Source of the DNA: Phycisphaerae bacterium
GTDB lineage: Bacteria > Planctomycetota > Phycisphaerae > UBA1845 > PWPN01
DNA: 59,141 nt
NCBI GenBank assembly: GCA_018003015.1
Contig: JAGNEZ010000040.1
Location: 1 to 59,141, forward strand
Reading direction: 5' to 3'
The translations under genes and the position numbers were made by a program. The notes below the pieces were generated by a model. It searched no databases and had not been told where the DNA came from. It saw nothing but the letters and a program-made list of their open reading frames with translations. Shown one piece after another: positions 3,557-23,789 of this stretch. Positions within the stretch are counted from its first letter, which is position 1. Each line of letters opens with the position of its first letter.

Positions 3557-3664
3557 TCTTCTCTGCCTCAACCGACGCTTGGATTCCGCTTGGGCTTCGG
3601 CGTTCTCTCGAGAGGCTACCATCCCGAGGCGCGTCTCGGACTTCCCGGTCGGGCAGTCAGGACC

Positions 3665-3670
3665 TATACT
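3665..3670 (+). promoter_or_regulatory. Possible -10 element for larE
   Basis: TATACT lies 55 bases before the larE start, with a poor -35 candidate (TTCCCG, 3642-3647) at 17-base spacing. The only support is the -10 match. Confidence 0.3.
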
Positions 3671-3724
3671 TGGGCAGCGGGGACGAGGCTGGCGGGCAAG
3701 GCTGCCCTGCAGACAGAGGTTCCG

Positions 3725-4561: not shown

Positions 4562-4562
4562 G

Positions 4563-4580
4563 GAGCACGCCGCAGTGCTC
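4563..4580. terminator. Hairpin between convergent larE and sirtuin genes
   Basis: GAGCAC, a six-base loop, then GTGCTC directly after the larE stop: a perfect 6-bp stem. There is no T-tract, so intrinsic terminator function is uncertain. Confidence 0.35.
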
Positions 4581-4683
4581 GGCGGGCAAGGTGCGAGCCG
4601 GGTGTGTGAGCTGCACCGCTGGCGTAACCCAGGTTGCGGAGACGGATTCACTTCCAGCATGGTACTTCAAGGCCCTGGCAGCA

Positions 4684-6071: not shown

Positions 6072-7040
6072 ATGATCCACCAGAGCAATCGACGCGAGTT
6101 TCTGCAGCGTACCGCCCTGGCCGCTACGGCCGCCGGTGCGGTTGGCAGCACTGCCATGCCTACTCGGGCCGAGGATGCCCTGCCCGCTGGCGGAGAGGGC
6201 AAGAAGCCAGCGGTGCTGAAGATATCCGCCCAGGAAGGCGTCGTTCCGGGCAGGAGCCTCTCTGAGAAGCTGGACAACATGGAGAAGTGGGGATATGTCG
6301 GGTTAGAAGTGGGCGGCGGCAATCTACCGAAGCGGGTAAAGGAATTGCAGGACGCGCTCAAGGGCCGCCCGATCAAGATGAGCGCGATCTGTGCCGGGTT
6401 TCAGGGCTGGCTGATCAGCGACGACAAGGATACCCGGGAGAAGGCCCTGTCGTCGATGAAGGAGATCCTGACCGCCGCAGGCGAAGTCGGCTCCACCGGG
6501 CTGATCATCGTGCCGGCGTTCAACGGGCAGAAGTCGGTGCCTCACAAGCAGGCCCGAGAGATGCTGACCGGCTTCACCCGCTGGGACCGGTCCAACGACA
6601 AGGCCAGAACGTCGCTGCTCGGGGAGCTCGGCGAGCACGCCGCGAAGGCTGGAACCCGAATACTCCTTGAGCCTCTCAATCGCGATGAGTGCTATTTCTT
6701 GCGGACGCTGGCCGACGGGGCATCGATCTGCCGTGACGTGAACAGCCCGGGCATCGCCCTGATGGGTGACTTCTGGCACATGACCTGGGAAGAGACCTGC
6801 GACATGGGAGCGTTCCTGAGCGCCGGCAAGTACCTGCGTCACGTTCACATCGCGAGTCGCAAGGACCGTAAGACGCCGGGTGAGGACGGCGAGGCCGACA
6901 ACTACATCAACGGCTTCAAGGGCCTCAAGATGATCGGCTACCAGGACTACATCAGCCTGGAGTGCGGTTGCCGGGGCGATCGTAACGAGGCGATTCCGGC
7001 GGCGGCCAAGCTGATTCGCGAGCAGTGGGCCAAGGCATAG
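6072..7040 (+). CDS. Tat-exported sugar phosphate isomerase/epimerase-like TIM barrel
   Basis: A 322-residue protein with a twin-arginine signal (NRREFLQRTALAATAAG) followed by an AP-endonuclease-2/xylose-isomerase-like barrel. The family holds sugar isomerases and epimerases with a divalent metal. Likely metal-site strands are LLEPLNRDECYF, GDFWHM, VHIASR and SLECGCRGD. GGAGGA eight bases before ATG 6072 fixes the start over an in-frame ATG at 6000. The Tat signal implies folding in the cytoplasm and action outside the inner membrane. Such exported barrels are very numerous in Planctomycetes, with substrates mostly unknown. A second, distantly similar gene lies at 29231-30124. Confidence 0.85.
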   Translation: MIHQSNRREFLQRTALAATAAGAVGSTAMPTRAEDALPAGGEGKKPAVLKISAQEGVVPGRSLSEKLDNMEKWGYVGLEVGGGNLPKRVKELQDALKGRPIKMSAICAGFQGWLISDDKDTREKALSSMKEILTAAGEVGSTGLIIVPAFNGQKSVPHKQAREMLTGFTRWDRSNDKARTSLLGELGEHAAKAGTRILLEPLNRDECYFLRTLADGASICRDVNSPGIALMGDFWHMTWEETCDMGAFLSAGKYLRHVHIASRKDRKTPGEDGEADNYINGFKGLKMIGYQDYISLECGCRGDRNEAIPAAAKLIREQWAKA

Positions 7041-7269
7041 CCCCTGGGGTGTGGCGAGGTCCCGGGGATGTGGAGGGAATGACCTGGAGCGACTAACTGC
7101 CATGATCCGCCCTGGACAGCAATGTTCTACCGCAAGCCCTTGGGCCAACGTAGTCGGTATCGAATGCGGGGGTTTTGTCGGGTGTTTGGCCGGGAGGCGG
7201 TAGTGCCGTATCTTCTGCGACCGGTGAATGCTTGCAAAGCATTGGAAATAAGGTGGTTAAAGTAGCCTG

Positions 7270-7343
7270 GCGCCCGTAGCTCAGCAGGATAGAGCACCGG
7301 TTTCCTAAACCGGGGGTCACAGGTTCGAATCCTGTCGGGCGCG
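7270..7343 (+). tRNA. tRNA-Arg (anticodon CCT)
   Basis: A 74-base cloverleaf. The acceptor GCGCCCG pairs with CGGGCGC. The D-stem is GCTC/GAGC, the anticodon stem CCGGT/ACCGG encloses TTCCTAA, and the T-stem is ACAGG/CCTGT around TTCGAAT. The anticodon CCT reads AGG. Discriminator is G and CCA is not encoded. Confidence 0.97.
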
Positions 7344-7930
7344 ATTTCTGGCCGAGGAGCCCCCCATTCGGTTGTCACTGCAGCCTTGCCGTTGCAGGGC
7401 AGACGTGCCTCTGTCGATCGGGGGCATCCACAACGAGCGACTGCGTGGAGTCCATCCACATCTGGCAAACCGGGCGGGATAGCCGCTTCCCAGTACTGAG
7501 ACTGGCGTCAACCGTCCGCTGGCCAACGCGATGGCGGCCGCGGGCATGGGTAACCGGACCACGCAGATGCAAGGATTAGGGCGACAGCCGGGCTTTTGCG
7601 ATCGCGATTGTCCTCCAGTCTAGGCGGAATCTCGGATGGATCTTGGCGTAATTCCCACCCCGTAAGGTCACAGATTCCCAGGCCTGCAAACCGATATCAA
7701 GTGGGGAAAGAGGGAAGAAGTGTTCTCGGCGGAAGCGGGTTCAAGTCGCGCTTTATGATTGGCGACATTCGCTTGCATCCTGATCTCGCAAGTGATTCAA
7801 TGGAGGCATCCTCGCGGTGATTCAGTGGAGGGATCACTGTCTTCCGCAATGCCGCACGGGCAAACGGAACGGGAAGCAGAAGCGAACTACGGGAGCCGAT
7901 TTCAATTCCTCTTGTGCCAGAGGCGCAGAC
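7344..7930. other. Long leader/intergenic region before the giant gene
   Basis: 587 bases between tRNA-Arg and the giant RHS gene. No credible gene. It contains an imperfect direct repeat (7792-7810 and 7817-7835) about 100 bases upstream of the giant gene start. Confidence 0.5.
7792..7835 (+). repeat. Imperfect 19-base direct repeat, period 25
   Basis: GTGATTCAATGGAGGCATC (7792-7810) and GTGATTCAGTGGAGGGATC (7817-7835) agree at 17 of 19 bases. They lie in the presumed leader of the giant gene, and each copy contains GGAG. Confidence 0.7.
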
Positions 7931-10900
7931 ATGACTCTTCCATTTGTCTCTGAAAACGTCCTGCTCCGATCGCGCGTTGCCGGTTGCGTATTCGCCCTCG
8001 CAGCCGTACTCGCTTTCCAAGCCATCGGGCTTTCGTCTGTCGCAGCGGCCGATCCGGCGCCGACGGCACCTGGCCCGACGGCGTCCTCTGGCTTTCAGTA
8101 CCCTTCGCCAGATTACGGGGCGAGCCCGAAAGCACCCCAGACGTTTGTCGGGCAAGGGTTGGTGCCAGCTCCGGCCGAGAGCGCACCAGCGAACGCGGCC
8201 GATGACACTTCGAACGTCGCGCCCTCCAAGCCGACGGTGCCTCCGACGTCTCCCACTGCGGCGTCAGGCGGGAGCATGGGCAAAGCTCTGCCTACCGCCG
8301 CGGGGCTCTCGCCAGCCGATTTCGACAATGATGGGGACGTGGACCTGGACGACCTGCTGCATTTCACGACCTGCCTTTCCGGTGCGGGGCTGCCCCCGTC
8401 GGATCCGGCCTGCAGCGATGCTGATCTGGATCACGACAGTGACGTGGACCTGGACGACTTCGGACTTTTCCAGATCATGCTGAGTGGTCCCGGGCCCACG
8501 GCGGAAGCGGGCGGGCCCTACAGGGTGGTCGAGTCTGCGGTCCAAGACGTTTTGGGCGGGCTGTGGCCAGTGACGCTGGACGGCCGGGGCTCACACGCTG
8601 GCGATCCGGGCGACCCGATCGTCTCCTACTTGTGGGAAGGACACCTGTTCCGCAAGGAGACGTTTGACGGAGCGACGCTGGATACCGCCCGCTGGAACGC
8701 GGCCAACGCGGTGCAGAACGACAATGTCACCGTCACCGGTCAAAATGGCTGGGGACCTTCGTACGTCTTCACTCAGGAACCGCTCGATCGTGCCGAGGGG
8801 ATCAAGATCCAAGCCCGAGTTACGTGTCCCTCGCTGTGCCATGCGATGTGGGGTATCAAGCATAACGTCGCATCGACGAGCTATACGGCGATGCCGTATG
8901 CGATTTACTTCAGGGACAACGGGTATCTCCACATCTACGAGGACGGAAGCGACCGCGGCCACGTGGGCTATTACTCGGCCGGCACGACTTACGAAGTCAG
9001 AATCGATGTCAAGCCGGTAACCGGCGCCAGTTACTACATTCGTCCGCCCGGCTGCGCGGAATGGCTCCCGCTCTATGACTCAACCTATGGCGGAGCCAGC
9101 GGTTTTGTGGCGGGTCTCACGGTTCATTCCGCCTCGGTGTCGATGGACGACCTGTTCCATCCCACGAAGAGTATGGCGGGCGATGTAGCGGAGTGCTGGA
9201 TCGCGGCGGCGGGGGAAGCCAAGCTCACGGTGACCAACGTCACGGGCCAGACGGGCACGGACACGGCGTCAATCGGGATTGACGGCCAAGTTCCGACGGC
9301 GGTTTGCGGGGGGCCCTACCACGGGCCGCTGGGTGCCATTGTAGCCTTCGATGCCCTAAACTCGGTTGACGACGTCGCGATCACCCATTACGCGTGGGAC
9401 TTTGGCGATGGGGGAACGGCGACCGGGCGTTATGTCAAGCACGCCTTCGCGGCCGCGGGCACCTACAACGTGACGCTGACGGTTCGGGATCATGCCGGGC
9501 AGACGGGTACGGCCGCAACCACGGCGACGATTGAAGCGATGGCCGTCTGTGTTCCCTGGGAATACGATCGGCGGAGCGGCCGGGAAGTACCGCACTCGGT
9601 CTGGGACGGGCTGCAGACGCGGGTGAAGGCCGTGCTCTTCACGGATACGGCGGCGAATCAACTCACCTACAGCTGGGATTTTGGGGACGGTGATGCCCCG
9701 GCGACGGGCACCGTGAGCGACAAGCGGGCGCTCGAAACGAGCCACACGTACCGTGGACCGGCGGGTGCCTTGTACACAGCCACGCTCACGGTTCATGACC
9801 CGCAGCATGGCGATCTGGTGGACACCTACCCGGTTGAGATTCACGCCCGTGATCTGACCATCGAGGTCAATGCCGCGATCGATGAAGGGCTTTGGTGGCT
9901 GCACAAGAATCAGACTATCGGCGGTACGGGCAGCGTCGACTACTACTGGCGTTCGTATGGCGGCTACTGGATGGGTTCGACGGCCTCGACCCTTCACGCG
10001 ATGGAGATCAACGGGCACGTGCCCACCCGGTCGGCGGGACAGGATCCGTACGCCGAGGATGTGTCCAGGGCCCTGGACACGATGTTCACCGGTCTAACCC
10101 GCTACTGGATCGGCCCGCAGACTTACGGCGATCCGGATTCGAACGCGAACACCGTCGGTCTTTCGGTCAACTCGGACCGTCCGATCTATGAAGGTGGGAT
10201 GGTGATGGATGCGATCGCGGCCAGCGGCGCACCGGACCTGATGGCCTGCCGGGGCGATGCATTCGCGTTAGGACGGACTTATCGCGAGATTGCCCGGGAG
10301 ATGGCCGATCAGTACGCCTGGGGTCAGACAGACCGAGGCGGCTGGCGATACTCCTGGAACTCGGATGACGACAACTCCGCCTGTCAATGGGCGGCGATCG
10401 GCTTCATGGGAACCAAGACTGCCTTTGGCTTGGACGCTCCCAGCTGGGTCAAGGACCGTAATGATCTCTGGCTCACCCAGAGCTACAACGGCACCGGGTT
10501 TGGCTACACCGGGGCTGGCAACGGTGAAGCGACGACACCTTCGGGCATGGTGCAACTCGCCTTCTGCGGCAAGACCATTGAGGACAACCGATGGAAGACC
10601 GCAGAGGCATGGATCGCCAACAACTGGGAGTGGTGGAAGAAGACCAACAACGTCTACGCGTGGTATGCGTTTGCCAAGGCCATGCGACTGGCTCAGCCCC
10701 AGCCGGTGACCCAACTGACCGCGACGGGGATGGACTGGTATGACCACCTGACCGCGGGGCTGACCAAGTACATCCTCAACCGGCAGCAGACCGACGGCGG
10801 ATGGCCGGACTATTACGGTCGCGTTTTCGCCTCGGCCTGGCAGGTGACGATCCTGACCCCGACGCTGTTCACCCGTCCACCGGTGGCGATGGCCGGTGAC

Positions 10901-13900
10901 GACGTGGTTTGGGCCTTCGATCGGCCGTTGACCCTTGACGGTTCGTTGTCGTACCACACGGACCCGGTTCGATTGCTGGTCCAGTACGAATGGGACTTCG
11001 ACGGGGACGGTGCCTATGAGTACGTGGGTGTTGAGCCGACCGTTCAACACATCTACGCATTCGATCCGGCGATTGTGTACCCGACGGTCTACTCGGCCCG
11101 GTTGCGGGTGACCGACGACATCGGGCAGACGGATACCGACGTTCGGCAGGTCACCATCGCCGAGCCGCCGCATCCACCGATGGCAGTTATAGGAGGTCCG
11201 TACCAGGCTACGGCGGGCGTTCCCTTCCAGCCGGACGCGAGCGATTCGTACGACATCGATCCCGGCGATTTCATCACCCGCCAGGAATGGGACTTCAACG
11301 GCAGCGACGGGTACGACTTCGAGGATCCGGACGCAGCCGTCGACTGTCCCGCGGCCCGGGCCTGCCCGCAAGTCTCATGGACCTTCGACACACCCGGCGT
11401 CTACAACATCGGTCTGCGGGTATGGGATAATGCTGTCCTTCACGCCGAATTGGCGAAACTGGCTTCGGTTCCTGTTTACACCACGGTGACGGTCAGCGGC
11501 AACATTGCGCCGATCGCCCATGCGGGCGGGCCGTACGACACGGTTGAATGCCAGCCCCTCCAGCTTGATGGAACAGCGTCGTCGGACGCCAACGGCGATG
11601 CGATAACCTATGCCTGGGATCTTGACGGTGACGGGGAGTACGACGACGCCACCGGACCAGCGCCGTCGCACACATGGGACACGGCCGGGGTCTACAGCGT
11701 CGGTCTGATTGTCTCGGATGGATCGTTGTCGAGCCAAGCGGTGCAGGTGCAAGTGACGGTAGGTGATTCCACTCCGCAAGTGACCGTGATCGGCCCGGAC
11801 AAGCTAGCGGCCGGCCAGCTTGGCCTGTTCGACGCCCTGGTCACTTCCGCCTGCGAGGTTCAAGCCGTCGAGTGGGACTGGGATTTCGATTCTACAGAGT
11901 TCAATTCCTCGGGCGACGCCGGCGCCGCCCAGGAGCACGTCTATGCGTCCCAGGGCACTTACATGGTGGCCGTTCGGGTCACCGACAAGAACGGAGCGGC
12001 CTCGATCGGCACGACGGCCGTACAGATCAGCGCTGCCGACAGCCCGAGGGTGTACGCCAACACGCGCATGAAGGTCATTGTCGGCCGGCGTGACTACGAC
12101 GTAGCTCGACACGTGCACATGGCCCAGTTCACGCTCCTGAACCAGAGCACCGTGCCGATGACCGGCCCGATCGGTCTGGCATTCTCGGACATCAATCCAT
12201 CCAGTGTCGTCCTGTTGAACGCGAGTGGCACGGTGCCACACCCCAGCGAGCCCGAAAGGCAGATTGCCTACGTGGACTTCAGCAGCCTGTTGACGAACAA
12301 CACCCTGGCCGCGGGAGCCAGTATCGGACCGAAGTGGGTCGAGTTCCAGGGCCCCCAGGACGTGGCCTTCACATTCGACGCGTTCGCCTATCTGTTCAAC
12401 TCGCCTCCGCGGATCACATCCGCGCCGGTGGTGACCGCGACCGAGGGGCAGCGGTACCGCTATGAGGTCGTCGCGGTAGACGACGACGGCGACCCGGTTC
12501 GTTTCGGACTGACGGCGACCGGCGGCATCGCCCCACCGGCCGGCATGTCCGTTCATCCGCTATGCGGCCTCGTCGACTGGATGCCCGGCCAGCAGGCGGC
12601 GGGTGCCCAACCGGTCACCATTGTGGTTGACGACGGCTTGCCAGGCAGTTCCGCTCAGCAGGCCTTCGAGATCACCGTGAGCGCGGTGAACGTTGCCCCG
12701 ACGATCACTTCCACGCCGATCACGACCGCGATCGTCAATGCCGCATACACCTACCAGGTGCAGGCGAGCGATCCGGACGGCGACCCGATCAGCTACGCCC
12801 TGACGGAAGCTCCGACGGACATGACCCTCAGCTCAAGCGGGCTTGTCCAGTGGGCACCGATGGCACCCGGCGGGCGGCAGATTCGATTGACAGTCACGGA
12901 CGATCACGGTCGTGTGACCGGGCAGGACTACGTGTTGACCGCGGTGGGCTGCGAAGCCCCTCCACGGATCACGTCCGAGCCTCTGCTCGCCGCCGCGGAA
13001 GGTCAGCCCTACACCTATCAAGTGGTCGTAGACGGTGCGGTCACGGCGTTTTCTCTGGCAGCGGCACCGGCGGGCATGACCATCAGTCCATCGGGACTCA
13101 TTTCCTGGACGCCGGCCTACAACGCGGCGGGTGCACGAACCGTCAAGGTGATCGTCGCCACGGCCACACCCGACTGCCAGGCGGAGCAGATCTTCCAGAT
13201 AGAGGTCGATAGCCGGAATGGGGCACCTTCGTTCATCACGGTGCCAGTGACCGCAGCCACGGAAGGGGTCTACTACCGGTACGGAGCCCAGGCGACCGAT
13301 CCGGATGGTGAAACGGTCGGCTATACGCTCATCCAGGGGCCGGAGGGCATGAAGATCAACCCCGTTGCAGGGGTCATCGAGTGGATTCCGTCTCAGACCG
13401 CGGCGGCAGGCAGCCCGCACACCGTCATCATTACCGCAACCGATCCGTTGCGGGCCCGGACGGTGCAGACGTTCCAGATCCAGGTCGCCGCCCAGGAGAT
13501 GCCGCCGCGGATCGTCTCCGAGCCGATCTATGGCGCGGTCGAGGGGACGCTCTATGAATACCAGGTGGTCGCGGAGGATCCCGACGACGACCAACTGGCC
13601 TACGCCCTGCCGCGAGCACCGACGGGCATGACCATCAGTGCGACGGGGCTGATCCAGTGGACGCCCCCACAGGATGCGGCCGCCCACAATCCCCAGATTG
13701 TGGAAATCAGCGTGACCGACCCGGCCGGGCATCTCGCCAGCCAGGTGTACCAGATCTTCGTCCGGGTGGTGAACGTACCTCCCGAGATCACCTCCGAACC
13801 GGCGACCGCCGGCGTCGAGGGCCAGGTCTATCGCTACTCGGTCGTTGCGACCGACGCCGACCTCGACGTGCTGACCTACTCGCTGGTCACTACGCCGGGC

Positions 13901-16900
13901 GGCATGAGCATTCACCCGGGGACCGGCTTGATCGACTGGCTGGTGCCCCAGACCGCAGCGGCGGCCAATCCGCACTCCGTCACGGTTGCGGTCAGCGATG
14001 GGATAGAGACGGTGCAGCAATCGTTCGAGATCACGGTCGCCGAGGTGAACGTCGGGCCGATCATCACCTCCACGCCCGAAGACCGCGCGACGGTCGACGA
14101 GCCGTACACGTACGGCGTTGTGGGGAGCGACCCGGACGGCGACCCGGTGGTCTTCAGCCTGCTCGAAGGACCGGAGGACATGACCATTGACCCGGTGAGC
14201 GGAACCGTTCAATGGACTCCCGTCGAAGGCGATTTCGGGAATCACGCGGTCACCATTCGGGTCGATGACGATCACGGACACTTTGTCACCCAGGTATACA
14301 CGCTCTTCGTGTCCGAACTAGGCCACGATACGCTGCCCCAGATCACATCGACGCCGATCTTCTCGGCCCAGGTGGATCAGCAGTACCGCTACCAGGTTAT
14401 CGCCGAGGATCTTGACGGCGACCCCCTGTTCTACGCGTTGCTCCTAGCTCCTCCCGGGATGGCCGTCGACACCAACGCCGGCCTGATCACCTGGACGCCG
14501 ACGGCCGCTCAGATCGGCAGCCACGAAGTGCACGTCAAAGTGGACGACCGGCGCATCGGGTATGCCGTCCAGACCTACTTCGTGACGGTCTCGCTGCACG
14601 GCGACAATAGTCCACCGCGGATCACTTCCACGCCGCCGTTCACAGCCCGGGTGGACGAGAGGTACGTCTACCCTGTAGCCGCCACCGACCCGGACAACGA
14701 CAGCCTGCGTTTCACGCTGGTGAAAGCCCCGGTTGGCGCCGGCATTGACTCGGCCAGCGGGCAGCTCACCTGGACGCCGAATGCTGAGCAAGTCGGCCGA
14801 TACGATGTGACCATTCGCGTGGATGACGGCCGTGGCGGCTGGGGTGAGCAGCAGTACTCACTGACCGTATCCCTGACCGGCGAGAATCGCTCGCCGGACA
14901 TTACCTCGACGCCGGCACTGGCGGCCGGAGTCGATCAGGCCTACGCCTATCAGGTCGTGGCTATCGATCCGGACCTGGACCCGCTGGTCTACGTCCTCGA
15001 AACGAAGCCGAGCGGCATGACCATCGGCGCAACCACCGGGTTGATTGGATGGACACCCGGCGTGGCCGATCTCGGCGTTCATGAGGTCTCCGTCAAGGCC
15101 GCTGACGGCAAGGGCGGATGGGCGATCCAGACCTACGCCCTGACCGTTTCCCAGGCGGGCGGCAACACGTCGCCACGGTTCATCTCTGTCCCCGTCACGG
15201 TAGCCCAGGCGGAAGCGACGTACAGCTACTCGGCGAAGGCGGTGGACGATGACGGGGATGCGATCACGTACGGTCTGGCGACGGCCCCTGACGGCATGGT
15301 CGTCGTTGCGGCGAGCGGCCTGATCGAGTGGACACCCCAGGCCACCCAGCTCGGCACCCACCCGGTGGTGTTGCGGGCGGATGACGGCAGAGGCGGGTAC
15401 ACCCAACAGTCGTTCCAGGTGACCGTTTCCGCGGACGGCACCAACCGGGCTCCGCGGATCGTGTCGACCGCCATCACGACGGTCATGGCCGGCCAGAACT
15501 ACCAGTACGTGGTCGTGGCCAGTGACGAGGATGGCGATGCCCTTTCCTTTGCCCTGGAGGCTGCGCCGGCGGCCATGACCATCGATGCCGCCACGGGTGC
15601 CATCGGCTGGGCAACGACGGCGGAGGACGTCGGCCGCCACCCCGTGACCATCACGGTGACCGACAGCGACGGTGCCTGGACGACTCAGCCCTATGAGCTC
15701 GAGGTCCGGGTCAACCAGCCGCCGCGGATCGTCTCCTCGCCGTCGACGCGTGCGGTGGTGGACATGCCCTACCGATACGAAGTGAAGGCCACGGATCCGG
15801 AGATGTCCCGGCTCGGCTTCGCTCTGGACCAACCGGTTGAGGGCATGGCCATCGACGCTCAGACGGGCGTGATCACCTGGACGCCGACGGCCGCCCAGGT
15901 CGGTCCGCACGCGGTTGTGGTGGTGGTTCGGGACAGCCTGGATGCCGAGGCTCGGCAGAACTATACGCTGACGGTCTATACCGGCGCCGACGCCGATCTG
16001 TATGCGCCGGAGGTGACGGTCACGGCCGCTCCGCGAACGGTGAACCCGGGCGAGCCGGTCACGCTCACGGTGAAGGCCACCGATGATCTCATGGTCACGG
16101 CGTTGGCGCTGACCGTGAATGACGCTCCAATTGCCCTGACCGCGGACGGGCAGGCGGTGTTCACGCCGACGGTCCCGGGCGGGTTTGTGGCCCGGGCGAC
16201 GGCCACCGACCTGGCCGGCCACGTTGGCAAGGGCACGACGGACTTCTACGCCCGCACGCCGGGCGACAGCACTGCCCCGACGGTGGCGATCACCGCGCCG
16301 GCAGCGGACGCGGCACTGAAGGCGTCGACGGCCATCGTGGGCACGGCCAGCGACGACAACCTCTACAAGTACACCCTGGCCTATCGGTCGGTGGGCACCG
16401 AGGCGTACATCGAGTTCGCGACCAGCTACACCTCGGTGGTCGGTGGCACGCTCGGCACGCTAGACACCACCCTGATGATGAACGGCATGTACGAGGTGCG
16501 GTTGCGGGCCGAGGACACGAATGGGAACGTCAATGAAGTGACGACGGGTTACTCCGTCGCCGGCAATCTGAAACTGGGCAACTTCTCCATCAGCTTTGTG
16601 GACTTGGCCATTCCCGTGTCAGGCATTCCGATCAGGCTGACCCGGACTTACGACAGTCGCAACAAGGCAAAAGGGGATTTTGGCGTCGGCTGGACCTTGG
16701 ATATCGCGAGTTTGCAGATCAAGAAGAACAAGCCTGCTGGAAAGGACTGGGAGCAGCGGGTCATCCGAGGACTCGGGGGATTGAATCGTTTCATTCTCAT
16801 CCCCAAACGGACGCACATTGTTTCAATCACCTGGCCTGGCGGCCGAACCGAGCAATTCGCCATGAGGACCGTGCCTGCGGAGCAGGCGTTTATCCCAATC

Positions 16901-19900
16901 GAGTACTTCTCTTCGGTCGTGTTTGACCCCATTCCACCGGCGACCTCCAAGCTGCAAGTGCTCGGCGACACGTCGGGCTACTACACGGGGGGCCCCCCGG
17001 CTGACGCGAGCACGCCATCGGAGGGCGACCTCTTCTTCTACTCCAACGACCTTTTTGATCCTTCCTCGTATCGACTGACAACGCGCGAGGGCAGGTCGTA
17101 TACCCTGGTAGGACTCCCCGGCAGTCCGACAGCCAATCTCCAGGCCATCAAGGATGGAAATGACAACAGTCTGGAGATCACCCACAACGGCATCCTCCAT
17201 TCATCTGGCAAAGGCGTTATCTTCGAGCGCGACGGTGAAGACCGCCTGGTTTCGATGACCGATCCCAAGGGTGGCAAGCTGCGTTTCGAGTACGACGACC
17301 GCGGCGATCTAATCAGCTTTGTCAACCAGGCAGGGAACACCACACGGTTCGTCTACAACGACGATCACTACCTCGTCGAGATCATCGATCCTCGTGGCGT
17401 CACCGCCAGCCGTCTCATCTATGACGATGCCGGACATCTCGTCGCATCGATTGACGCCAACGGCAAGCGTGTGGATTTGCAGCACAACCTCGACACTCGA
17501 CAGGAGGTGGTCCGAGATGAGAATGGCACAACCTGGGTTTACGACTACGACGCCGCAGGCAACGTCGTTGCCGAAACCGATGGTCTTGGACGTCGCAGCG
17601 AGTACACCTACGACGGCCAGGGTCACCTGCTCACCGAGAAGGATGCGCTGAACAACGTGACCACCTACACTTACAGCACGAGCGGTGACCTGCTGACGTC
17701 AACAAGCCCCGTCGGTGCCGTAGTGAGGATGGCCTACAACGATCACGGCCGCGTCACCTCGGTGACGGACCCGAACGGCAACACCCAGACGTCTGCCTAT
17801 GACGACAGAGGAAACCTGGTTTCCGTTACCGATGTGACGGGAAACACCACTACCTTCAGTTATGACGCACGAGGGCATCTGCTCACGAAGTCCGACCCCC
17901 TCGGGAACGTGACCAGCTACCAATACGACTCATTCGGCAACCAGACTGAGGTTCAGAAGCCTGATGGGACCCAGGTCTCGACTACCTATGACGAGAACGG
18001 AAATGCCCTGAGCCAGACGTACCGAACGGCCAGCGGCGGGAGCACAATTGAGCTGGTCACCATGAATCAATACGACGCGATGAACCGTGTCGTGAGAACC
18101 GTCGATCCATACGGAGAGGCGACAGAGGTCACTTACGACGAAGCAGGCCTGCAAACGTTGAACAAAGACGCGCGCGGCCGTGAGACTCGGTTCGAGTACA
18201 ATCTTTCCGGCCGGATGGTTCGGCGAGTCAACCCCGACGGTACGGCATACTCGGCCAGCTACGATGCCACGGGCAGGCCGCTCAGCAGCAGCGACTGGGA
18301 GGGAAACACGGTGAGCTACGAGTACAACGCCGTCGGTTTACAGACCAGAATGCGAAAGTCGAACGGCTGCACCATCGAGCGGACCTATGATGCCCTGGGC
18401 AGGATCCTCACTGAGACCGATTGTTCAGGTACCGTCGTCGCCCAGTACGAATACGATGCCGCGGGCCGACTGATCGGAAGCACGGACGCATTCGGCAAGA
18501 AAGCGACGCTCACCTATGATGCCGGCGGGAATCCACTCCAGATGAAGGACCCGCTGGGCCGAGTGATTGGTATTGAATACACTTCTCGGAACGAAGTGGC
18601 CGCCGTTCACTATCCTGACGGCACATCCACGACAATGAAGTACGACACCCTTGGGCGACGCACTCAGGAGACCGATGCGCTTGGCCGGGTCACCCGCTAT
18701 GAGTACGATAACGTCGGGCGACTGACCAAAGTCGGAGATGCTCTTGGGAACGAGACGACCTTCGGCTACAACGGCATGGGCAGGCGGACCTGGCTGCGCG
18801 ATGCCCTGGGCCATGAGACGACCTGGGAGTACGACAATCGCGGCCGACTGCTCCGCACTACGCGCCCCGACGGCTCGACCGAGACGTTCGCGTACAGCCC
18901 TGACAATCGGCTCACCAGCTCCACCAACGGCGATGGTGAGACAGTCGAGTACGTCTATGACACAGAGGATCGACTGGCCGCCAAACTCCTGCCTGACGGA
19001 AACCGGATTGAGTATCAGTACGATCTCAACGGACGACGTACGCAGGTGAGCTACATGGGGCGGGTCTTCCGATACGCCTACGACGCTTCTGGGCGCCTTT
19101 CTCAGGTGACCGATGCTCATGGCCGAACGGTTACCTACACCTACAACGTCAACGGCCGACGTCAGAGCATGACGACGCCCGCCGGCACGGTCCAGTACGC
19201 CTACGACGCCGCGGGGCAGCTCACAACCATCACCGACCCGGACGGTGCGACCACCCTTCTTGCCTACGATGATCTTGGTCGGCGCACATCATGCACACTC
19301 CCCAACGGGGTGAGAACAACTTATACCTACGATCAAGGGGACTACCTGCTCTCAAGCGAGTCCAGAAAGGCAGATGATTCTCTGCTGGCGTCCTTCCGTT
19401 ACGAGGTCAACGCCGCAGGACACCGGACGAAAGCGGTCGAGACAACGCCTCAGGGCAACCGGGAGTTGACCTTCCGGTACGATGAGCTGTACCGCCTCAC
19501 CGATGTCGACACGGCGGATTCCGTTCGCGGTCCCAGCACCGAGGCGTATGGTTACGACGCGGTCGGCAACCGGCTGACCAAGCTGACCTTGGGGGCGCCG
19601 GCGATAGCGTACGCGTATGACGCCGACGACCACCTGACCCAGGCAGGCTCAACTAGGTTTGCCTGGGATCGAAAAGGCAATCGGGTAGCCCGGTTTGCTC
19701 CTTCAGATACCGCGACATTCGAGTACGACCGCGCCGGCAGAATGGTAGCCGTTCAGCGAACCTCTCCGCAAATCGAGAGGTTGACCTACAGCTACGACGA
19801 CGACGGGATCATGACGGCCTTCGGCGTAAACGGTGCCATGAGTCAGTACGTCATCGACAAAGCGGCTCCGCTGCCTTCGCCGATCGAGGAATACGATGCC

Positions 19901-21118
19901 AGCAGCAATCTAGCGGCTTACTACGTCTACGACGACACGGGCATTTTGTACTTCAAGAGGGGCGGCCAGTCCTTCTACTGTGTCAAGGACGGATTTGGTT
20001 CCGTGCGACTCCTGACCGACGCCACGGGCCAGGTCACCGACTTGTACACTTACGACACGTTCGGAAACGTTGCCGACCGCCAGGGTTCGACGTTGAACCG
20101 GCATTTCTTCCGGGGCCAGGTCTTGGACGCCAAGACTGACCTCTACTATCTCCGCGCCAGGCACTACGATCCAGTGACGGGCCTCTTCACGACCCGAGAT
20201 CGCGTTCCTGGCGACTCGCCCGTGCCGCGCAGCCTGCATCGATACTCCTACTGCATGGGCAACCCAGTAACCTACGCAGACCCGCTCGGCAACAAGAGCC
20301 TCATCGAGCAGATGGGCGTCTGTGCGATCATCGCCAACTTGGTGGGCATGTTCGTGGGAACCACATCCGCGATGGGCATTCTCGGCATGACGACGGTATA
20401 CGTTGAGGACGCCATGGCCAGCGGCTCACCCTTGCCGACCCATATTCTGGTAGGGCTGGCAGGCAACTACAACTTCGGAACAACGCTGGCCAAGAAGTGG
20501 CCTCGCTACTTCGCGGGCTGGTACTGGCTCACCGGTGTGGGTTCGGTCGAGGGCCTGATCGGCACGACCCTGGGCGGCGGCCCGAAGACCAGTTGCTTCT
20601 GGTTGTACGGATCGCTCGGACTAGCGGTGAACGCTCTCTACGATCCCGGTGCGGGTTTCACTCCTTTCGCAGGCCTGGTCTGGAATGCCACTCAGACCGG
20701 TTCCTACGAAGGGCCGTTCTTCACCACTTCAGGGGCTGTGGCCGAGTGCTTGTTTGACCGCAAATACGACAACATGAAGATTCGCAAGATGGTCAAGAAA
20801 CTCGGCGGCAAGTACGCTCAGAGAGGTTTTGCCATCTTCGCGGGTCCAAAGGCGATGGACGACTGGAGCCACGGCGGCTGTTGGGGGGTGAGCACCAGCA
20901 AGTGGGGATCCAAGTCGAGCCGGATGGGGCAGTTCACCCTGGCCACGACTTTCTACGCCTATCTCCCTGATTTGGCTCGCAAGGTGGGTAAAGGGCTGAG
21001 CGGCGTCTTTGACTCGCTCGAGACTGCCCTCGATTCAACTGACGCGATGTTGGAGGACCTCGAGGAGGCGCTCGAGCAAGCGGTGAACGGAAGCGATGAA
21101 GACTCGACCGGCGCGTGA
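7931..21118 (+). CDS. Giant secreted dockerin/PKD/putative-Ig/RHS repeat protein
   Basis: A 4395-residue multidomain exoprotein. In order: signal peptide (hydrophobic stretch ending SSVAAA); an acidic dockerin-like pair (about 127-187, DFDNDGDVDLDDL and DLDHDSDVDLDDF); about seven PKD-type domains, the first split by a concanavalin-like insert (about 237-410); an alpha/alpha-toroid-like region (about 641-983, GLWWLHKNQ, DRGGWRY, QQTDGGWPDYYG); 13 putative-Ig (He_PIG type) repeats (about 1491-2686); two Ig-like domains; then RHS. The RHS part starts near residue 2876 (RLTRTYDSRNKAKGDFGVGW), has about 40 YD repeats such as YEYDNVGRLTKV, and reaches the core near 4056-4120 (LRARHYDPVTGLFTTRD). 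The last 275 residues match no family I know. ATG 7931 has AGAGGCG upstream and begins the signal peptide; an in-frame GTG at 7817 is less likely. A role in surface adhesion or contact-dependent interaction is inferred from RHS relatives. Confidence 0.9.
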   Translation: MTLPFVSENVLLRSRVAGCVFALAAVLAFQAIGLSSVAAADPAPTAPGPTASSGFQYPSPDYGASPKAPQTFVGQGLVPAPAESAPANAADDTSNVAPSKPTVPPTSPTAASGGSMGKALPTAAGLSPADFDNDGDVDLDDLLHFTTCLSGAGLPPSDPACSDADLDHDSDVDLDDFGLFQIMLSGPGPTAEAGGPYRVVESAVQDVLGGLWPVTLDGRGSHAGDPGDPIVSYLWEGHLFRKETFDGATLDTARWNAANAVQNDNVTVTGQNGWGPSYVFTQEPLDRAEGIKIQARVTCPSLCHAMWGIKHNVASTSYTAMPYAIYFRDNGYLHIYEDGSDRGHVGYYSAGTTYEVRIDVKPVTGASYYIRPPGCAEWLPLYDSTYGGASGFVAGLTVHSASVSMDDLFHPTKSMAGDVAECWIAAAGEAKLTVTNVTGQTGTDTASIGIDGQVPTAVCGGPYHGPLGAIVAFDALNSVDDVAITHYAWDFGDGGTATGRYVKHAFAAAGTYNVTLTVRDHAGQTGTAATTATIEAMAVCVPWEYDRRSGREVPHSVWDGLQTRVKAVLFTDTAANQLTYSWDFGDGDAPATGTVSDKRALETSHTYRGPAGALYTATLTVHDPQHGDLVDTYPVEIHARDLTIEVNAAIDEGLWWLHKNQTIGGTGSVDYYWRSYGGYWMGSTASTLHAMEINGHVPTRSAGQDPYAEDVSRALDTMFTGLTRYWIGPQTYGDPDSNANTVGLSVNSDRPIYEGGMVMDAIAASGAPDLMACRGDAFALGRTYREIAREMADQYAWGQTDRGGWRYSWNSDDDNSACQWAAIGFMGTKTAFGLDAPSWVKDRNDLWLTQSYNGTGFGYTGAGNGEATTPSGMVQLAFCGKTIEDNRWKTAEAWIANNWEWWKKTNNVYAWYAFAKAMRLAQPQPVTQLTATGMDWYDHLTAGLTKYILNRQQTDGGWPDYYGRVFASAWQVTILTPTLFTRPPVAMAGDDVVWAFDRPLTLDGSLSYHTDPVRLLVQYEWDFDGDGAYEYVGVEPTVQHIYAFDPAIVYPTVYSARLRVTDDIGQTDTDVRQVTIAEPPHPPMAVIGGPYQATAGVPFQPDASDSYDIDPGDFITRQEWDFNGSDGYDFEDPDAAVDCPAARACPQVSWTFDTPGVYNIGLRVWDNAVLHAELAKLASVPVYTTVTVSGNIAPIAHAGGPYDTVECQPLQLDGTASSDANGDAITYAWDLDGDGEYDDATGPAPSHTWDTAGVYSVGLIVSDGSLSSQAVQVQVTVGDSTPQVTVIGPDKLAAGQLGLFDALVTSACEVQAVEWDWDFDSTEFNSSGDAGAAQEHVYASQGTYMVAVRVTDKNGAASIGTTAVQISAADSPRVYANTRMKVIVGRRDYDVARHVHMAQFTLLNQSTVPMTGPIGLAFSDINPSSVVLLNASGTVPHPSEPERQIAYVDFSSLLTNNTLAAGASIGPKWVEFQGPQDVAFTFDAFAYLFNSPPRITSAPVVTATEGQRYRYEVVAVDDDGDPVRFGLTATGGIAPPAGMSVHPLCGLVDWMPGQQAAGAQPVTIVVDDGLPGSSAQQAFEITVSAVNVAPTITSTPITTAIVNAAYTYQVQASDPDGDPISYALTEAPTDMTLSSSGLVQWAPMAPGGRQIRLTVTDDHGRVTGQDYVLTAVGCEAPPRITSEPLLAAAEGQPYTYQVVVDGAVTAFSLAAAPAGMTISPSGLISWTPAYNAAGARTVKVIVATATPDCQAEQIFQIEVDSRNGAPSFITVPVTAATEGVYYRYGAQATDPDGETVGYTLIQGPEGMKINPVAGVIEWIPSQTAAAGSPHTVIITATDPLRARTVQTFQIQVAAQEMPPRIVSEPIYGAVEGTLYEYQVVAEDPDDDQLAYALPRAPTGMTISATGLIQWTPPQDAAAHNPQIVEISVTDPAGHLASQVYQIFVRVVNVPPEITSEPATAGVEGQVYRYSVVATDADLDVLTYSLVTTPGGMSIHPGTGLIDWLVPQTAAAANPHSVTVAVSDGIETVQQSFEITVAEVNVGPIITSTPEDRATVDEPYTYGVVGSDPDGDPVVFSLLEGPEDMTIDPVSGTVQWTPVEGDFGNHAVTIRVDDDHGHFVTQVYTLFVSELGHDTLPQITSTPIFSAQVDQQYRYQVIAEDLDGDPLFYALLLAPPGMAVDTNAGLITWTPTAAQIGSHEVHVKVDDRRIGYAVQTYFVTVSLHGDNSPPRITSTPPFTARVDERYVYPVAATDPDNDSLRFTLVKAPVGAGIDSASGQLTWTPNAEQVGRYDVTIRVDDGRGGWGEQQYSLTVSLTGENRSPDITSTPALAAGVDQAYAYQVVAIDPDLDPLVYVLETKPSGMTIGATTGLIGWTPGVADLGVHEVSVKAADGKGGWAIQTYALTVSQAGGNTSPRFISVPVTVAQAEATYSYSAKAVDDDGDAITYGLATAPDGMVVVAASGLIEWTPQATQLGTHPVVLRADDGRGGYTQQSFQVTVSADGTNRAPRIVSTAITTVMAGQNYQYVVVASDEDGDALSFALEAAPAAMTIDAATGAIGWATTAEDVGRHPVTITVTDSDGAWTTQPYELEVRVNQPPRIVSSPSTRAVVDMPYRYEVKATDPEMSRLGFALDQPVEGMAIDAQTGVITWTPTAAQVGPHAVVVVVRDSLDAEARQNYTLTVYTGADADLYAPEVTVTAAPRTVNPGEPVTLTVKATDDLMVTALALTVNDAPIALTADGQAVFTPTVPGGFVARATATDLAGHVGKGTTDFYARTPGDSTAPTVAITAPAADAALKASTAIVGTASDDNLYKYTLAYRSVGTEAYIEFATSYTSVVGGTLGTLDTTLMMNGMYEVRLRAEDTNGNVNEVTTGYSVAGNLKLGNFSISFVDLAIPVSGIPIRLTRTYDSRNKAKGDFGVGWTLDIASLQIKKNKPAGKDWEQRVIRGLGGLNRFILIPKRTHIVSITWPGGRTEQFAMRTVPAEQAFIPIEYFSSVVFDPIPPATSKLQVLGDTSGYYTGGPPADASTPSEGDLFFYSNDLFDPSSYRLTTREGRSYTLVGLPGSPTANLQAIKDGNDNSLEITHNGILHSSGKGVIFERDGEDRLVSMTDPKGGKLRFEYDDRGDLISFVNQAGNTTRFVYNDDHYLVEIIDPRGVTASRLIYDDAGHLVASIDANGKRVDLQHNLDTRQEVVRDENGTTWVYDYDAAGNVVAETDGLGRRSEYTYDGQGHLLTEKDALNNVTTYTYSTSGDLLTSTSPVGAVVRMAYNDHGRVTSVTDPNGNTQTSAYDDRGNLVSVTDVTGNTTTFSYDARGHLLTKSDPLGNVTSYQYDSFGNQTEVQKPDGTQVSTTYDENGNALSQTYRTASGGSTIELVTMNQYDAMNRVVRTVDPYGEATEVTYDEAGLQTLNKDARGRETRFEYNLSGRMVRRVNPDGTAYSASYDATGRPLSSSDWEGNTVSYEYNAVGLQTRMRKSNGCTIERTYDALGRILTETDCSGTVVAQYEYDAAGRLIGSTDAFGKKATLTYDAGGNPLQMKDPLGRVIGIEYTSRNEVAAVHYPDGTSTTMKYDTLGRRTQETDALGRVTRYEYDNVGRLTKVGDALGNETTFGYNGMGRRTWLRDALGHETTWEYDNRGRLLRTTRPDGSTETFAYSPDNRLTSSTNGDGETVEYVYDTEDRLAAKLLPDGNRIEYQYDLNGRRTQVSYMGRVFRYAYDASGRLSQVTDAHGRTVTYTYNVNGRRQSMTTPAGTVQYAYDAAGQLTTITDPDGATTLLAYDDLGRRTSCTLPNGVRTTYTYDQGDYLLSSESRKADDSLLASFRYEVNAAGHRTKAVETTPQGNRELTFRYDELYRLTDVDTADSVRGPSTEAYGYDAVGNRLTKLTLGAPAIAYAYDADDHLTQAGSTRFAWDRKGNRVARFAPSDTATFEYDRAGRMVAVQRTSPQIERLTYSYDDDGIMTAFGVNGAMSQYVIDKAAPLPSPIEEYDASSNLAAYYVYDDTGILYFKRGGQSFYCVKDGFGSVRLLTDATGQVTDLYTYDTFGNVADRQGSTLNRHFFRGQVLDAKTDLYYLRARHYDPVTGLFTTRDRVPGDSPVPRSLHRYSYCMGNPVTYADPLGNKSLIEQMGVCAIIANLVGMFVGTTSAMGILGMTTVYVEDAMASGSPLPTHILVGLAGNYNFGTTLAKKWPRYFAGWYWLTGVGSVEGLIGTTLGGGPKTSCFWLYGSLGLAVNALYDPGAGFTPFAGLVWNATQTGSYEGPFFTTSGAVAECLFDRKYDNMKIRKMVKKLGGKYAQRGFAIFAGPKAMDDWSHGGCWGVSTSKWGSKSSRMGQFTLATTFYAYLPDLARKVGKGLSGVFDSLETALDSTDAMLEDLEEALEQAVNGSDEDSTGA
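12404..15990 (+). repeat. 13 tandem putative-Ig (He_PIG) repeats inside the giant gene
   Basis: Coding repeats of about 90 codons, each opening with PPRITS(T/E)P-like sequence, with DPDGDPL in the middle and GLIxWTP near the end. Copies are diverged in sequence, so this is an old protein-level array and not a recent DNA duplication. Confidence 0.85.
20290..21115 (+). other. Unrecognised C-terminal domain downstream of the RHS core
   Basis: About 275 residues after the RHS core motif, the position where RHS proteins carry variable toxin or effector tips. It begins with a hydrophobic segment (MGVCAIIANLVGMFVG). Gly/aromatic-rich, strand-like sequence follows (GWYWLTGVGSVEGLIG, GLVWNATQTGSYEG, GGCWGVSTSKWG), then an acidic helical tail. 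I recognise no nuclease, deaminase or peptidase motif, and no immunity-like gene follows on the same strand. Confidence 0.6.
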
Positions 21119-21514
21119 TGCCTGCGACGGGAGCTTCCCTTGCGGTGTGGCCCGAAGTTGCCGCGGTGTTTGAACACACGCACCGCTGCCCCGCAGAGCC
21201 GGACACAAGTCGGTCTGCACTCGCCAACCAAGACAAGACCGCTTCCTGGGCGGCGACCTTTGGCGATCACGGTGTCTGAGCAGGTTCGCGCAAAGCGCTG
21301 GCCGGCCTTCCCCGTAGCACGAGCGCCCGACGGTAATCGTGCCAGTCAAGCCGCCCAGGCCACCCGGCGAACAGGTTCGCCAGGAACGTTCCCGCGAAGG
21401 TGGCTCCTCGCGGATTCGATGCACTTGCCGGTGCTGCGGCCGCTGCCCGTCACATCCAGTGCAACCACCGCCCGAAGCCCGGGCAGGCTGCCGTCCTCCG
21501 CGTCCGTGGCGGGA
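21119..21514. other. Intergenic region between convergent exoprotein genes
   Basis: About 396 bases between the giant gene and the TSP3-repeat gene. No credible gene on either strand, and no clear terminator with a T-tract. Confidence 0.5.
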
Positions 21515-22984
21515 TCACGTCTTGTTCGATGATCCTGCCGTGCATTTGAGTGCCAGCAGGGCCAGCAGCATGCATGGCAAGGGAGCGGCGCCCATTGCCC
21601 CGCAGGCGTTGAAGTGGGAGACCACGGTCACGATCCGGCGTTCCTCGTGGGTAATGGATGGATCGGGCCGGGCCGTGTCATCGTCGCAGGCATCGCCCAT
21701 GCCGTCGCCGTCGGTATCCTCCTGGCCGGGGTTGGCGCTAGCCGGGCAGTTGTCGAGGCAGTCCAGGACGCCGTCCGCGTCTGGGTCGGCATCGGCGACC
21801 CCGCAGCCGCACGTGCCGGGGGCGGTCTTGAGTGGATCGTTGGGACAGCCGTCCAGGCAGTCGACGGTGCCATCCGCGTCGGAGTCCGTATCCGCAACCC
21901 CGCACCCGCAGATGCCCGCCGCAGTCTTGTTGGGGTCGCCCGGGCACGTATCGGCACAATCCGCAACCCCGTCAGCATCAGTATCTGTGTCCGCCACGCC
22001 GCAGCCGCAGGTGCCCGGTGCAGTCTTGGCGAGGTCATCCGGGCAATTGTCGACGCAATCCGACACGCCGTCGCCGTCGCCATCGGTTTCGGCCACGCCG
22101 CAACCGCAGGTCCCCGGCAACGTCTTCGTGGGATCGCGCGGGCAGGGGTCGCTACAGTCGGGGCTGCCGTCCCTGTCAGAATCGGTATCGGGCACGCCGC
22201 ACCCGCACAGCCCGGGTGCGGCCTTGGCCACATCGTCCGGGCAGCCGTCGAGGCAATCCAGCACGCCGTCGCCGTCGCGATCCGTGTCGGGGATTCCGCA
22301 GCCGCATACGCCGGGTGCAGTCTTGGCGGGATCGCCCGGGCACTGGTCGACGCCCCCTCCGGGCGTGACCTGGATGCCGTCGACGCCGACCACGGTGACC
22401 TGGCCGTCGTCCGTACCGGTTCCGAGCAGGTCGAACTGTAGCCGGACGCGGGTGCCGGGAGCCAGCGTGGTGATTGTGGCCGTGACGGTGAACCAACCGT
22501 CTCGAATGGTTGAAGGAGTCCGAGTGACGATCAGCGGGTCGAAGTCGATGTTGCCCGGCGAGTCGTTGTAGAAGTAGTCGTTCACGCCGGCGGTATAGAT
22601 GAGCGGGGCGAGCGTATCCGGATCGAGCAACCGGGCGGTGAAAGCGTCGGGCAGGGCGCTGCCTCCGACGAAATCGCCGGCGACGACCAGCACGTACTCG
22701 AACACCAGCGCGCCGGCGTCCTCGATCACGAAATCCTGATAGAGCGAGCTTGAGGCAACGGCCCCCGTCGTCCCGGCCTCATCGAGGACGGCCAACCCGC
22801 CCTGGCCGTCAGCGAGTGGGGTAACGATACTCCCCACCTTGACGATCCATCCGTTGAGTGCATCTTCAAAGCTGGGGTTGGTCACCTCCGCGTATGTTCC
22901 TGGGGCAAGCCCCAGACAGGATACCGCAGCCGCCCACACCACCGCGCCGCGTACCCGGCGGAGTCCTCTTTTCACAGTCCTCAT
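21515..22984 (-). CDS. Secreted thrombospondin type 3 repeat protein
   Basis: A 489-residue exported protein. It has a signal peptide (Arg-rich start, then AAAVSCLGLAPGTYA) and a beta-rich domain of about 210 residues opening VTNPSFEDALNGW, like carbohydrate-binding or discoidin-type modules. Six Cys-containing calcium-binding repeats of the form CPxDxxKTAPGxCGCGxxDTDxDxDG follow, with a final DTDGDGMGDACDDD. The tail has ACGAMGAAPLPC, a hydrophobic run (MLLALLALK) and a short polar end, resembling a C-terminal sorting tag. ATG 22984 is chosen because GGAGG lies nine bases upstream and it begins the signal peptide; the open frame reaches 23158. A run of seven C (22997-23003) abuts this ribosome binding site. 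TSP3 repeats bind Ca2+ and are common in planctomycete surface proteins. It is convergent with the giant RHS gene. Confidence 0.85.
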   Translation of the reverse strand: MRTVKRGLRRVRGAVVWAAAVSCLGLAPGTYAEVTNPSFEDALNGWIVKVGSIVTPLADGQGGLAVLDEAGTTGAVASSSLYQDFVIEDAGALVFEYVLVVAGDFVGGSALPDAFTARLLDPDTLAPLIYTAGVNDYFYNDSPGNIDFDPLIVTRTPSTIRDGWFTVTATITTLAPGTRVRLQFDLLGTGTDDGQVTVVGVDGIQVTPGGGVDQCPGDPAKTAPGVCGCGIPDTDRDGDGVLDCLDGCPDDVAKAAPGLCGCGVPDTDSDRDGSPDCSDPCPRDPTKTLPGTCGCGVAETDGDGDGVSDCVDNCPDDLAKTAPGTCGCGVADTDTDADGVADCADTCPGDPNKTAAGICGCGVADTDSDADGTVDCLDGCPNDPLKTAPGTCGCGVADADPDADGVLDCLDNCPASANPGQEDTDGDGMGDACDDDTARPDPSITHEERRIVTVVSHFNACGAMGAAPLPCMLLALLALKCTAGSSNKT

Positions 22985-23789
22985 GGCCACAAGCCTCCCC
23001 CCCATAGCAAGCCACTCCAGCGTCTTCTTCGATCTCACCGCATGGAGCCGGCCAAGGGTTGTCTCCGCGGCGACCCAGCATGAGCCGAGCGCCACCCCTT
23101 GGCCGCCCCCTCTCTGACGTGTCTTCAGACTTTCACCTCCTAATGATACCCCGAACAAGCGAAGATTTCAAGCAGAGCAGAACGGGAATCGGCCAGGCGT
23201 AGGGTTCTGGGCCGGGCCGAGGTCCGAGGGTGGTCGACGAAGGCGTGGACCTTGATCAGGGCGGTCATGCCTGGCGGGATTATCGGCCGTGACTTGGTCG
23301 TCGTGGTCCCGGGCGGCGCCGTTGATTCTCTGGCCGACGCCGCTCGGTCTGCCTGGCGTGTCGGTCCACCGGCTGAGCCTTGCCTGAACGCCTAGCCCAG
23401 ATGGGGATGTAGCCGGGCACTCGCCGTTGGAGCGTTTTGACGCGTTCTGCGTTACCTGGATGGTCGTATGCTGGCCTTCGGCAGTTGGGCGGCTCTTGGC
23501 TCTGCCGAGTCCGGCCCTTCATTCGGCGGCAGCCGACGGGCGTTTGAAGAGAGGCCTGGCATCCGATTACGCGGCTCGCGGGACTGGCGCGCTGATCGAT
23601 TTGGCGTTCGAGGGCCGTCAGTTGAGGAGGAGTCCGGTCGCCGCTGGCTGCTTGGGGGTGGGCGGCTGGACTTGGCAGCCCACATCGGTCCGCGATAATG
23701 AAGCCGCCGGATATGCAGCTTCGGGGCGGATCATTGCTGATGGCGGCATCATCGGTTCTCGAGTGCGGGCTCGAAGGAGGTCTGACCAC
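22985..23789. other. Divergent intergenic region, about 800 bases
   Basis: Lies between the TSP3 gene and the PEP-binding-domain gene. Open frames continue into it from both sides, but their products are Arg/Gly/Pro-rich and lack family features. I see no RNA gene. AAGGAGG at 23774-23780 belongs to the downstream gene. Confidence 0.45.

What the first reader, a model, noticed from the sequence alone, without database searches (positions are those of the whole stretch)
7931..21118. 4395-residue composite exoprotein joining dockerin, PKD, toroid, putative-Ig and RHS modules
Seen: one uninterrupted 13.2 kb frame holds a dockerin-like pair, about seven PKD domains, an alpha/alpha-toroid-like region, 13 He_PIG-type repeats, about 40 YD repeats and an RHS core. 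Known: RHS cores form a cocoon that encloses and releases a C-terminal tip; dockerin modules bind cohesins. Inference: a cell-surface or secreted delivery device tethered through calcium-dependent modules, with a very long stalk. I do not know of a described system with this order of domains.
Basis: partly seen in the sequence, partly recalled or inferred. Interest (0 to 1): 0.65.

Follow-up and report, generated by a model that had tools for sequence, protein, structure and literature searches.

The report
Giant stalked RHS cartridge surface protein
A planctomycete bacterium makes a giant secreted protein, a long chain of Ig-like modules ending in an RHS toxin-type shell and a variable tip, and the whole shell-plus-tip end has been swapped out relative to its closest relative while the stalk and neighbouring genes stayed the same.

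Summary
The 4,395-residue frame is real, and an intact ortholog lies on a 940-kb contig of a same-genus genome, so it is not an assembly join. Confirmed: 13 He_PIG domains, about 6-7 PKD domains, about 40 YD repeats and an RHS core with the Arg-Asp-Asp self-cleavage residues. The "toroid" is a squalene-cyclase/prenyltransferase-type alpha/alpha toroid by profile comparison. The "dockerin" is a planctomycete EF-hand pair present at about 150 places in this genome, usually C-terminal; here it is N-terminal. The protein belongs to a class of giant stalked RHS exoproteins found across Planctomycetota, in frames up to 12,618 aa.

New points: (1) Against the same-genus ortholog, the stalk and both flanks are 90-92% identical in DNA, but everything from residue ~2880 to ~370 bp past the stop (RHS shell and tip) has been replaced. 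(2) Tips are unrelated; some relatives carry known toxin domains and paired immunity-type genes, but this locus has no ordinary-sized immunity gene. (3) A rare secreted partner gene lies beside this and most related giants.

Most likely it is a Sec-exported, surface-displayed polymorphic toxin of RHS type: a new variant of a known kind. The toxin activity of this tip is unproven.

The parts
7931..8050 (+). N-terminus with signal-peptide-like hydrophobic stretch (residues 9-27) before AADPAP
   Evidence: hydropathy scan finds only two TM-like stretches in the protein, residues 9-27 and 4124-4142; no signal-peptide predictor available
8312..8491 (+). dockerin-like EF-hand pair (residues ~128-187), N-terminal here
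8498..9280 (+). PKD-like unit with unassigned insert (residues 190-450); the matching region appears about 4-5 times in tandem in two relatives
9293..9847 (+). PKD domains (residues ~455-639)
9848..10966 (+). alpha/alpha toroid, squalene-cyclase/prenyltransferase type (residues 640-1012)
10967..12370 (+). further PKD domains and an unassigned linker domain (residues ~1013-1480)
12392..16000 (+). stalk of 13 He_PIG domains (residues ~1488-2690)
   Evidence: colinear in relatives
16007..16540 (+). two Big/Ig-like domains (residues ~2693-2870)
   Evidence: Big_7 32.4 bits
16556..17170 (+). RHS N-terminal plug module (DUF6531 at 2879-2924)
17171..20290 (+). RHS/YD shell and Rhs_assc_core with R4077, D4090, D4117
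20291..21115 (+). polymorphic C-terminal tip, 275 aa, starting with a TM-like segment; no known family
16568..21487 (+). segment replaced relative to the same-genus ortholog (RHS module, tip and ~370 bp downstream)
21518..23158 (-). partner gene: secreted protein with NxxFExxLxGW domain, TSP3 repeats and a C-terminal hydrophobic anchor-like tail; convergent

Best explanation
A Sec-exported, surface-displayed polymorphic toxin of the RHS type on an unusually long stalk. Shown by sequence: a hydrophobic N-terminus, an EF-hand pair, PKD, toroid and Ig-like modules, then an RHS plug, about 40 YD repeats and the core motif with the Arg-Asp-Asp residues that cut off the C-terminal tip in solved RHS proteins. 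Shown by comparison: the stalk is stable while the whole RHS module with its tip is exchanged as one cartridge, tips are mostly unrelated between relatives, and some relatives carry known toxin domains or a matching small gene next to the tip. Inferred: the N-terminal modules and the neighbouring partner protein hold the chain at the producer's surface, the stalk reaches a neighbouring cell, the core cuts the tip free inside the shell, and contact releases it, with the TM-like start of the tip helping it cross the target membrane. Not shown: that this tip is toxic, which cells it acts on, and how the producer protects itself, because no ordinary-sized immunity gene lies beside it.
For: Domain content. 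Conserved giant frames: G001 4,541 aa, G092 5,198, G089 5,515, G039 5,137, G059 4,239, and across the phylum up to 12,618 aa. R at -13, D, then D 27 residues on, conserved in the window and its 27-spacing relatives; the corresponding residues are catalytic in a bacterial teneurin-like protein, R2103/D2116/D2140 (PMC13018210). The shell model has pLDDT ~80-85 over residues ~3110-3860, with its best Foldseek hits all RHS proteins, E 8e-46. Cartridge swap: four-fold-site identity 0.82-0.88 in the stalk, 0.27-0.46 from residue ~2880 on (random expectation 0.32-0.35), with 90-92.5% identical DNA on both sides. Tips in relatives: Pput2613-deaminase 39.6 bits, Lipase_3/Mbeg1-like over cut-off, EndoU just under cut-off. 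Tips of G039 and G036 are 41% identical, and each is followed 6 nt later by homologous small genes, 23.3 bits against a best of 4.4 in 100 shuffles.
Against: This tip matches no toxin family and nothing convincing in 150 related genomes. No immunity gene of ordinary size follows it; the only candidate is a 53-aa ORF overlapping the stop, and the closest relatives G001, G092 and G089 also lack one. Closure of the shell was not reproduced (pTM 0.34, TM 0.26). No secretion predictor or expression data were available.
Confidence: 0.66

Rival explanations
1. A giant surface adhesin or biofilm scaffold, teneurin-like in use: the RHS shell is a structural or binding end, and the variable tip serves recognition rather than killing. 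Tip turnover reflects recognition diversity or antigenic change.
For: No immunity gene at this locus or in its closest relatives; the tip has no toxin family match; most of the mass is adhesive Ig/PKD modules. Metazoan teneurins use the same shell for adhesion (PMC13018210).
Against: The self-cleavage residues are kept; homologous giants carry deaminase, lipase and EndoU-like tips, and a toxin/immunity-type pair recurs in two genera.
Confidence: 0.2
2. A dockerin-tethered member of a cohesin-dockerin assembly, such as the proposed planctosome, in which RHS is one cargo among many and the toroid and LamG-like parts act on polymers.
For: EF-hand pair homologous to about 150 places in this genome; one genome protein has a subtilase, two cohesin matches and dockerins, with a counterpart in G001; PMC6461901 proposes cohesin-dockerin complexes in planctomycetes.
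Against: Only two cohesin places in the genome; the pair fails PF00404 itself; relatives with the same toroid, stalk and RHS lack the pair at their N-terminus (G092), so it is not essential to the design.
Confidence: 0.08
3. A decayed or non-functional RHS element kept open by chance.
For: Tip without known relatives or immunity gene.
Against: 13 kb open in two species at about 90% DNA identity, with amino-acid identity (0.90-0.95) above four-fold-site identity (0.82-0.88), so the stalk is under purifying selection; the cleavage residues are conserved.
Confidence: 0.04

Closest known systems
Sec-exported RHS polymorphic toxins with stalks (Zhang et al. 2012, PMC3482391)
   Same: N-terminal export and adhesion region, RHS repeats, releasing core, variable C-terminal end; planctomycetes are among the listed hosts
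   Different: Dockerin, PKD and cadherin are not mentioned in that text; the whole RHS module, not only the tip, is exchanged here; no ordinary immunity gene at this locus
Bacterial teneurin-like proteins (PMC13018210)
   Same: Surface-displayed stalk, plug, YD shell, Arg-Asp-Asp cleavage site, polymorphic C-terminus
   Different: No NHL domain between plug and shell; Asp-Asp spacing 27 rather than 24; the paper lists six phyla without Planctomycetota; an immunity gene follows almost all of theirs
T6SS Rhs effectors (RhsA 7q97, Tse5 8cp6, RhsP 8h8a)
   Same: RHS shell by sequence and local fold
   Different: No PAAR or VgrG part; hydrophobic leader and 2,800-residue stalk instead
Planctosome cohesin-dockerin model (PMC6461901)
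   Same: Planctomycete secreted proteins with dockerin modules, with hyaline-repeat and TSP parts in the complex
   Different: Proposed for peptide degradation; no RHS part mentioned in the passages read

Membership tests
RHS/YD-repeat protein | many YD repeats and Rhs_assc_core (TIGR03696) | tested here: met
RHS/YD-repeat protein | Arg-Asp-Asp autoproteolysis residues before the tip | tested here: met
   R4077, D4090, D4117 by sequence only; cleavage itself not tested
RHS/YD-repeat protein | closed beta shell enclosing the tip | tested here: inconclusive
   local sheet matches RHS shells, closure not modelled
Polymorphic toxin system | variable C-terminal module on a conserved N-terminal part | tested here: met
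Polymorphic toxin system | C-terminal module is a toxin | tested here: inconclusive
   no family match for this tip; toxin domains in some relatives
Polymorphic toxin system | adjacent immunity gene | tested here: not met
   no ordinary-sized gene at this locus; a tip/small-gene pair is present in G039 and G036. So described as working like one, not filed as a full member
Bacterial teneurin-like protein | FN-plug, NHL and YD shell adjacent and in order | tested here: not met
   no NHL hit in Pfam; shell follows the ~200-residue plug directly; sequence match to solved TLP covers shell only
T6SS Rhs effector | PAAR or VgrG N-terminal part | tested here: not met
   no such hit
Dockerin type I | passes PF00404 | tested here: not met
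   homologous pairs in the same genome do pass
Dockerin type I | binds a cohesin | not testable with these tools
   two cohesin matches in one genome protein
Alpha/alpha toroid (squalene cyclase/prenyltransferase type) | homology to the family | tested here: met
   profile-profile 99.7%, E 5.5e-27, to a family whose member passes PF13243, PF13249, PF00432; single-sequence fold failed, pLDDT 31

The most novel reading that the evidence does not exclude
A planctomycete surface-toxin display system with three separable parts: a conserved stalk (PKD, toroid, He_PIG), an RHS shell-plus-tip cartridge exchanged as one unit at the stalk/plug boundary, and a dedicated secreted partner protein (NxxFExxLxGW domain with TSP3, HYR or VWA) that travels with the stalk rather than with the tip and serves as its surface anchor or receptor.
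Probability: 0.3. Interest if true: 0.65.

Novelty: new variant of a known kind. Interest (0 to 1): 0.48.

Why it matters
Planctomycetes are known for giant genes of unknown use. This ties one class of them, found across the phylum, to RHS toxin-type delivery, gives a natural before-and-after pair in which a 5-kb cartridge was exchanged on a conserved stalk, and names a neighbouring partner gene that makes surface anchoring testable.

Tried and rejected
Assembly join: rejected by the G001 ortholog on a 940-kb contig. Classical tip-only exchange within a conserved core: rejected for this pair, because four-fold sites are saturated across the whole RHS part. Partner as immunity protein: rejected, because it is 86% identical in protein between the two species while the tips are unrelated. 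Toroid by PDB profile search: only one weak short terpene-synthase hit, chance-level and PKD hits. AlphaFold on the toroid alone: pLDDT 31, useless. Tip relatives in 150 genomes: none beyond a chance-level match. Literature: no paper held joins RHS repeat, dockerin and planctomycetes, and none on planctomycete YD-repeat giants was found. VIA-align gave no high-Z match outside RHS, teneurin and Tc shells.

Full report
Observation. The window (contig C40 of a 6.86-Mb, 144-contig genome; a same-genus genome is titled Planctomycetota) holds one uninterrupted frame, 7931-21118, 4,395 aa. Pfam and NCBIfam confirm 13 He_PIG, 6 PKD_4, 20 RHS_repeat stretches, DUF6531 and the RHS core; a pattern count gives 40 YD units.

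Not an assembly join. A search with the toroid segment finds an ortholog in the same genus on a 940-kb contig (4,541-aa frame) and giants in other families: G092 (5,198 aa), G089 (5,515 aa) and a second G092 copy cut by a contig end. The window and G001 align from the first residue.

Segments that needed work. The EF-hand pair fails PF00404, but about 155 places in the genome match it, and several of those pass the Pfam dockerin model. In nearly all of the copies fetched the pair is the last thing before the stop; in this protein, in G001 and in G089 it follows the leader instead, which leaves the C-terminus free for the tip (inference). The genome has two Pfam cohesin matches, both in one subtilase protein with its own dockerins. 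The toroid has no direct family hit, but its profile aligns over 291 columns, 99.7% probability, E 5.5e-27, to a planctomycete family of which one member passes three Pfam toroid models. The same PKD-toroid block occurs in separate 1,050-1,225-aa proteins without RHS, so it is a module that was combined with the RHS protein.

Family. Colinear similarity over the He_PIG stalk and RHS module extends to G039, G059 and G062, whose N-terminal modules differ. Over the phylum the RHS plug is found in 14 of 392 genomes, in frames of 1,492 to 12,618 aa; G467 and G447 show the same He_PIG-then-RHS order. RHS cores as such are common: 131 of 150 related genomes.

Core and tip. R4077, D4090 and D4117 match the Arg-Asp-Asp set shown to be catalytic in a bacterial teneurin-like protein (PMC13018210). 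In this group the two Asp are 27 residues apart (23-24 in the other RHS cores examined here), with a conserved (D/E)PxSLH(K/R)Y motif between them. Tips after the motif are mostly unrelated, and many start with a TM-like stretch. Relatives' tips match Pput2613-deaminase, Lipase_3/Mbeg1-like and, marginally, EndoU and TNT. G039 and G036 share a tip (41% identity), and both have a homologous 82-92-aa gene 6 nt downstream, which is the arrangement of a toxin and its immunity gene. The window tip has no relatives and no such gene; the nearest candidate is a 53-aa ORF overlapping the stop codon.

Cartridge exchange. Against G001, protein identity is 90-95% for residues 1-2855 and 38-44% over most of the RHS shell. 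Four-fold-site identity is 0.82-0.88 in the stalk, 0.92 at 2860-2879, 0.44 at 2880-2899 and 0.27-0.46 over the larger bins after that, against 0.32-0.35 expected for unrelated sites. DNA similarity of 92.5% resumes at 21488, 370 bp past the stop, and runs on for 19 kb. So the segment from the plug to just past the stop has been replaced as a unit. Four-fold GC is 0.72 in the window's RHS part, 0.81 in its stalk and 0.83 in G001's RHS part, which hints that the window's cartridge is the newcomer (inference). This shows replacement, not its mechanism.

Partner. The convergent gene 21518-23158 encodes a leader, a ~175-aa NxxFExxLxGW domain, TSP3 repeats and a hydrophobic tail. Homologs of the domain are few: 14 of 150 genomes. 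Of the 12 strongest places, 10 lie beside a giant or large RHS gene, usually just downstream on the same strand; the two exceptions are one ortholog pair. Seven of those 12 are the rows the profile was made from, chosen because of adjacency, so the fair test is the 13 other places: 5 adjacent (G001; G065; three in G036), 8 not, one of these on a 7-kb contig where it could not be seen. With RHS genes covering only a percent or so of these genomes (estimate), five is far above chance, though three come from one genome and one is the window's own ortholog. Partner C-termini vary (TSP3, HYR, VWA). The partner is 86% identical between window and G001, so it goes with the stalk, not with the tip.

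Structure. A two-sequence AlphaFold run gave pLDDT ~80-85 for ~750 residues of continuous beta hairpins; the best PDB matches are RHS and teneurin shells (E 8e-46), but global closure was not modelled (TM 0.26, rmsd 29).

Verdict. The protein works most likely like a Sec-exported stalked RHS polymorphic toxin. It is not filed as a teneurin-like protein (no NHL), not as a T6SS effector, and not as a complete polymorphic toxin system, because the immunity gene was looked for and not found.

Noticed in passing
G001 ortholog, L028 frame 2370-15992, late part of the YD shell; L027 equivalent: The G001 RHS shell carries an insert of roughly 110 residues with two hydrophobic stretches that the window protein lacks.
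   Followed up: no
L126 9654-11275 (-) and L068 2666-2860 (-): Orphan RHS fragments lie between the RHS gene and the partner gene, as expected of displaced older ends; in L126 also an FGE-sulfatase-like ORF.
   Followed up: no
window 7343-7349 versus G001:C1 16924-22112: About 5.2 kb just upstream of the giant gene is present in G001 and absent here; it holds a fasciclin-like and other secreted ORFs.
   Followed up: partly
L149/L150 (G525:C1): Two RHS-plug frames of 12,618 and 12,114 aa in one single-contig genome.
   Followed up: partly
G000 C101, C113, C128, C45, C13: Five further RHS cores in the own genome; C13 holds a 3,148-aa frame.
   Followed up: no
G015:C1 2095691-2117488 and G043:C1 1283695-1309426: Long tandem series of RHS cores in short frames, resembling arrays of orphan ends.
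   Followed up: no
L075 8147-14443 (-), G000:C63: Subtilase with TIG, two cohesins and dockerins, with a counterpart in G001; possible docking hub.
   Followed up: partly
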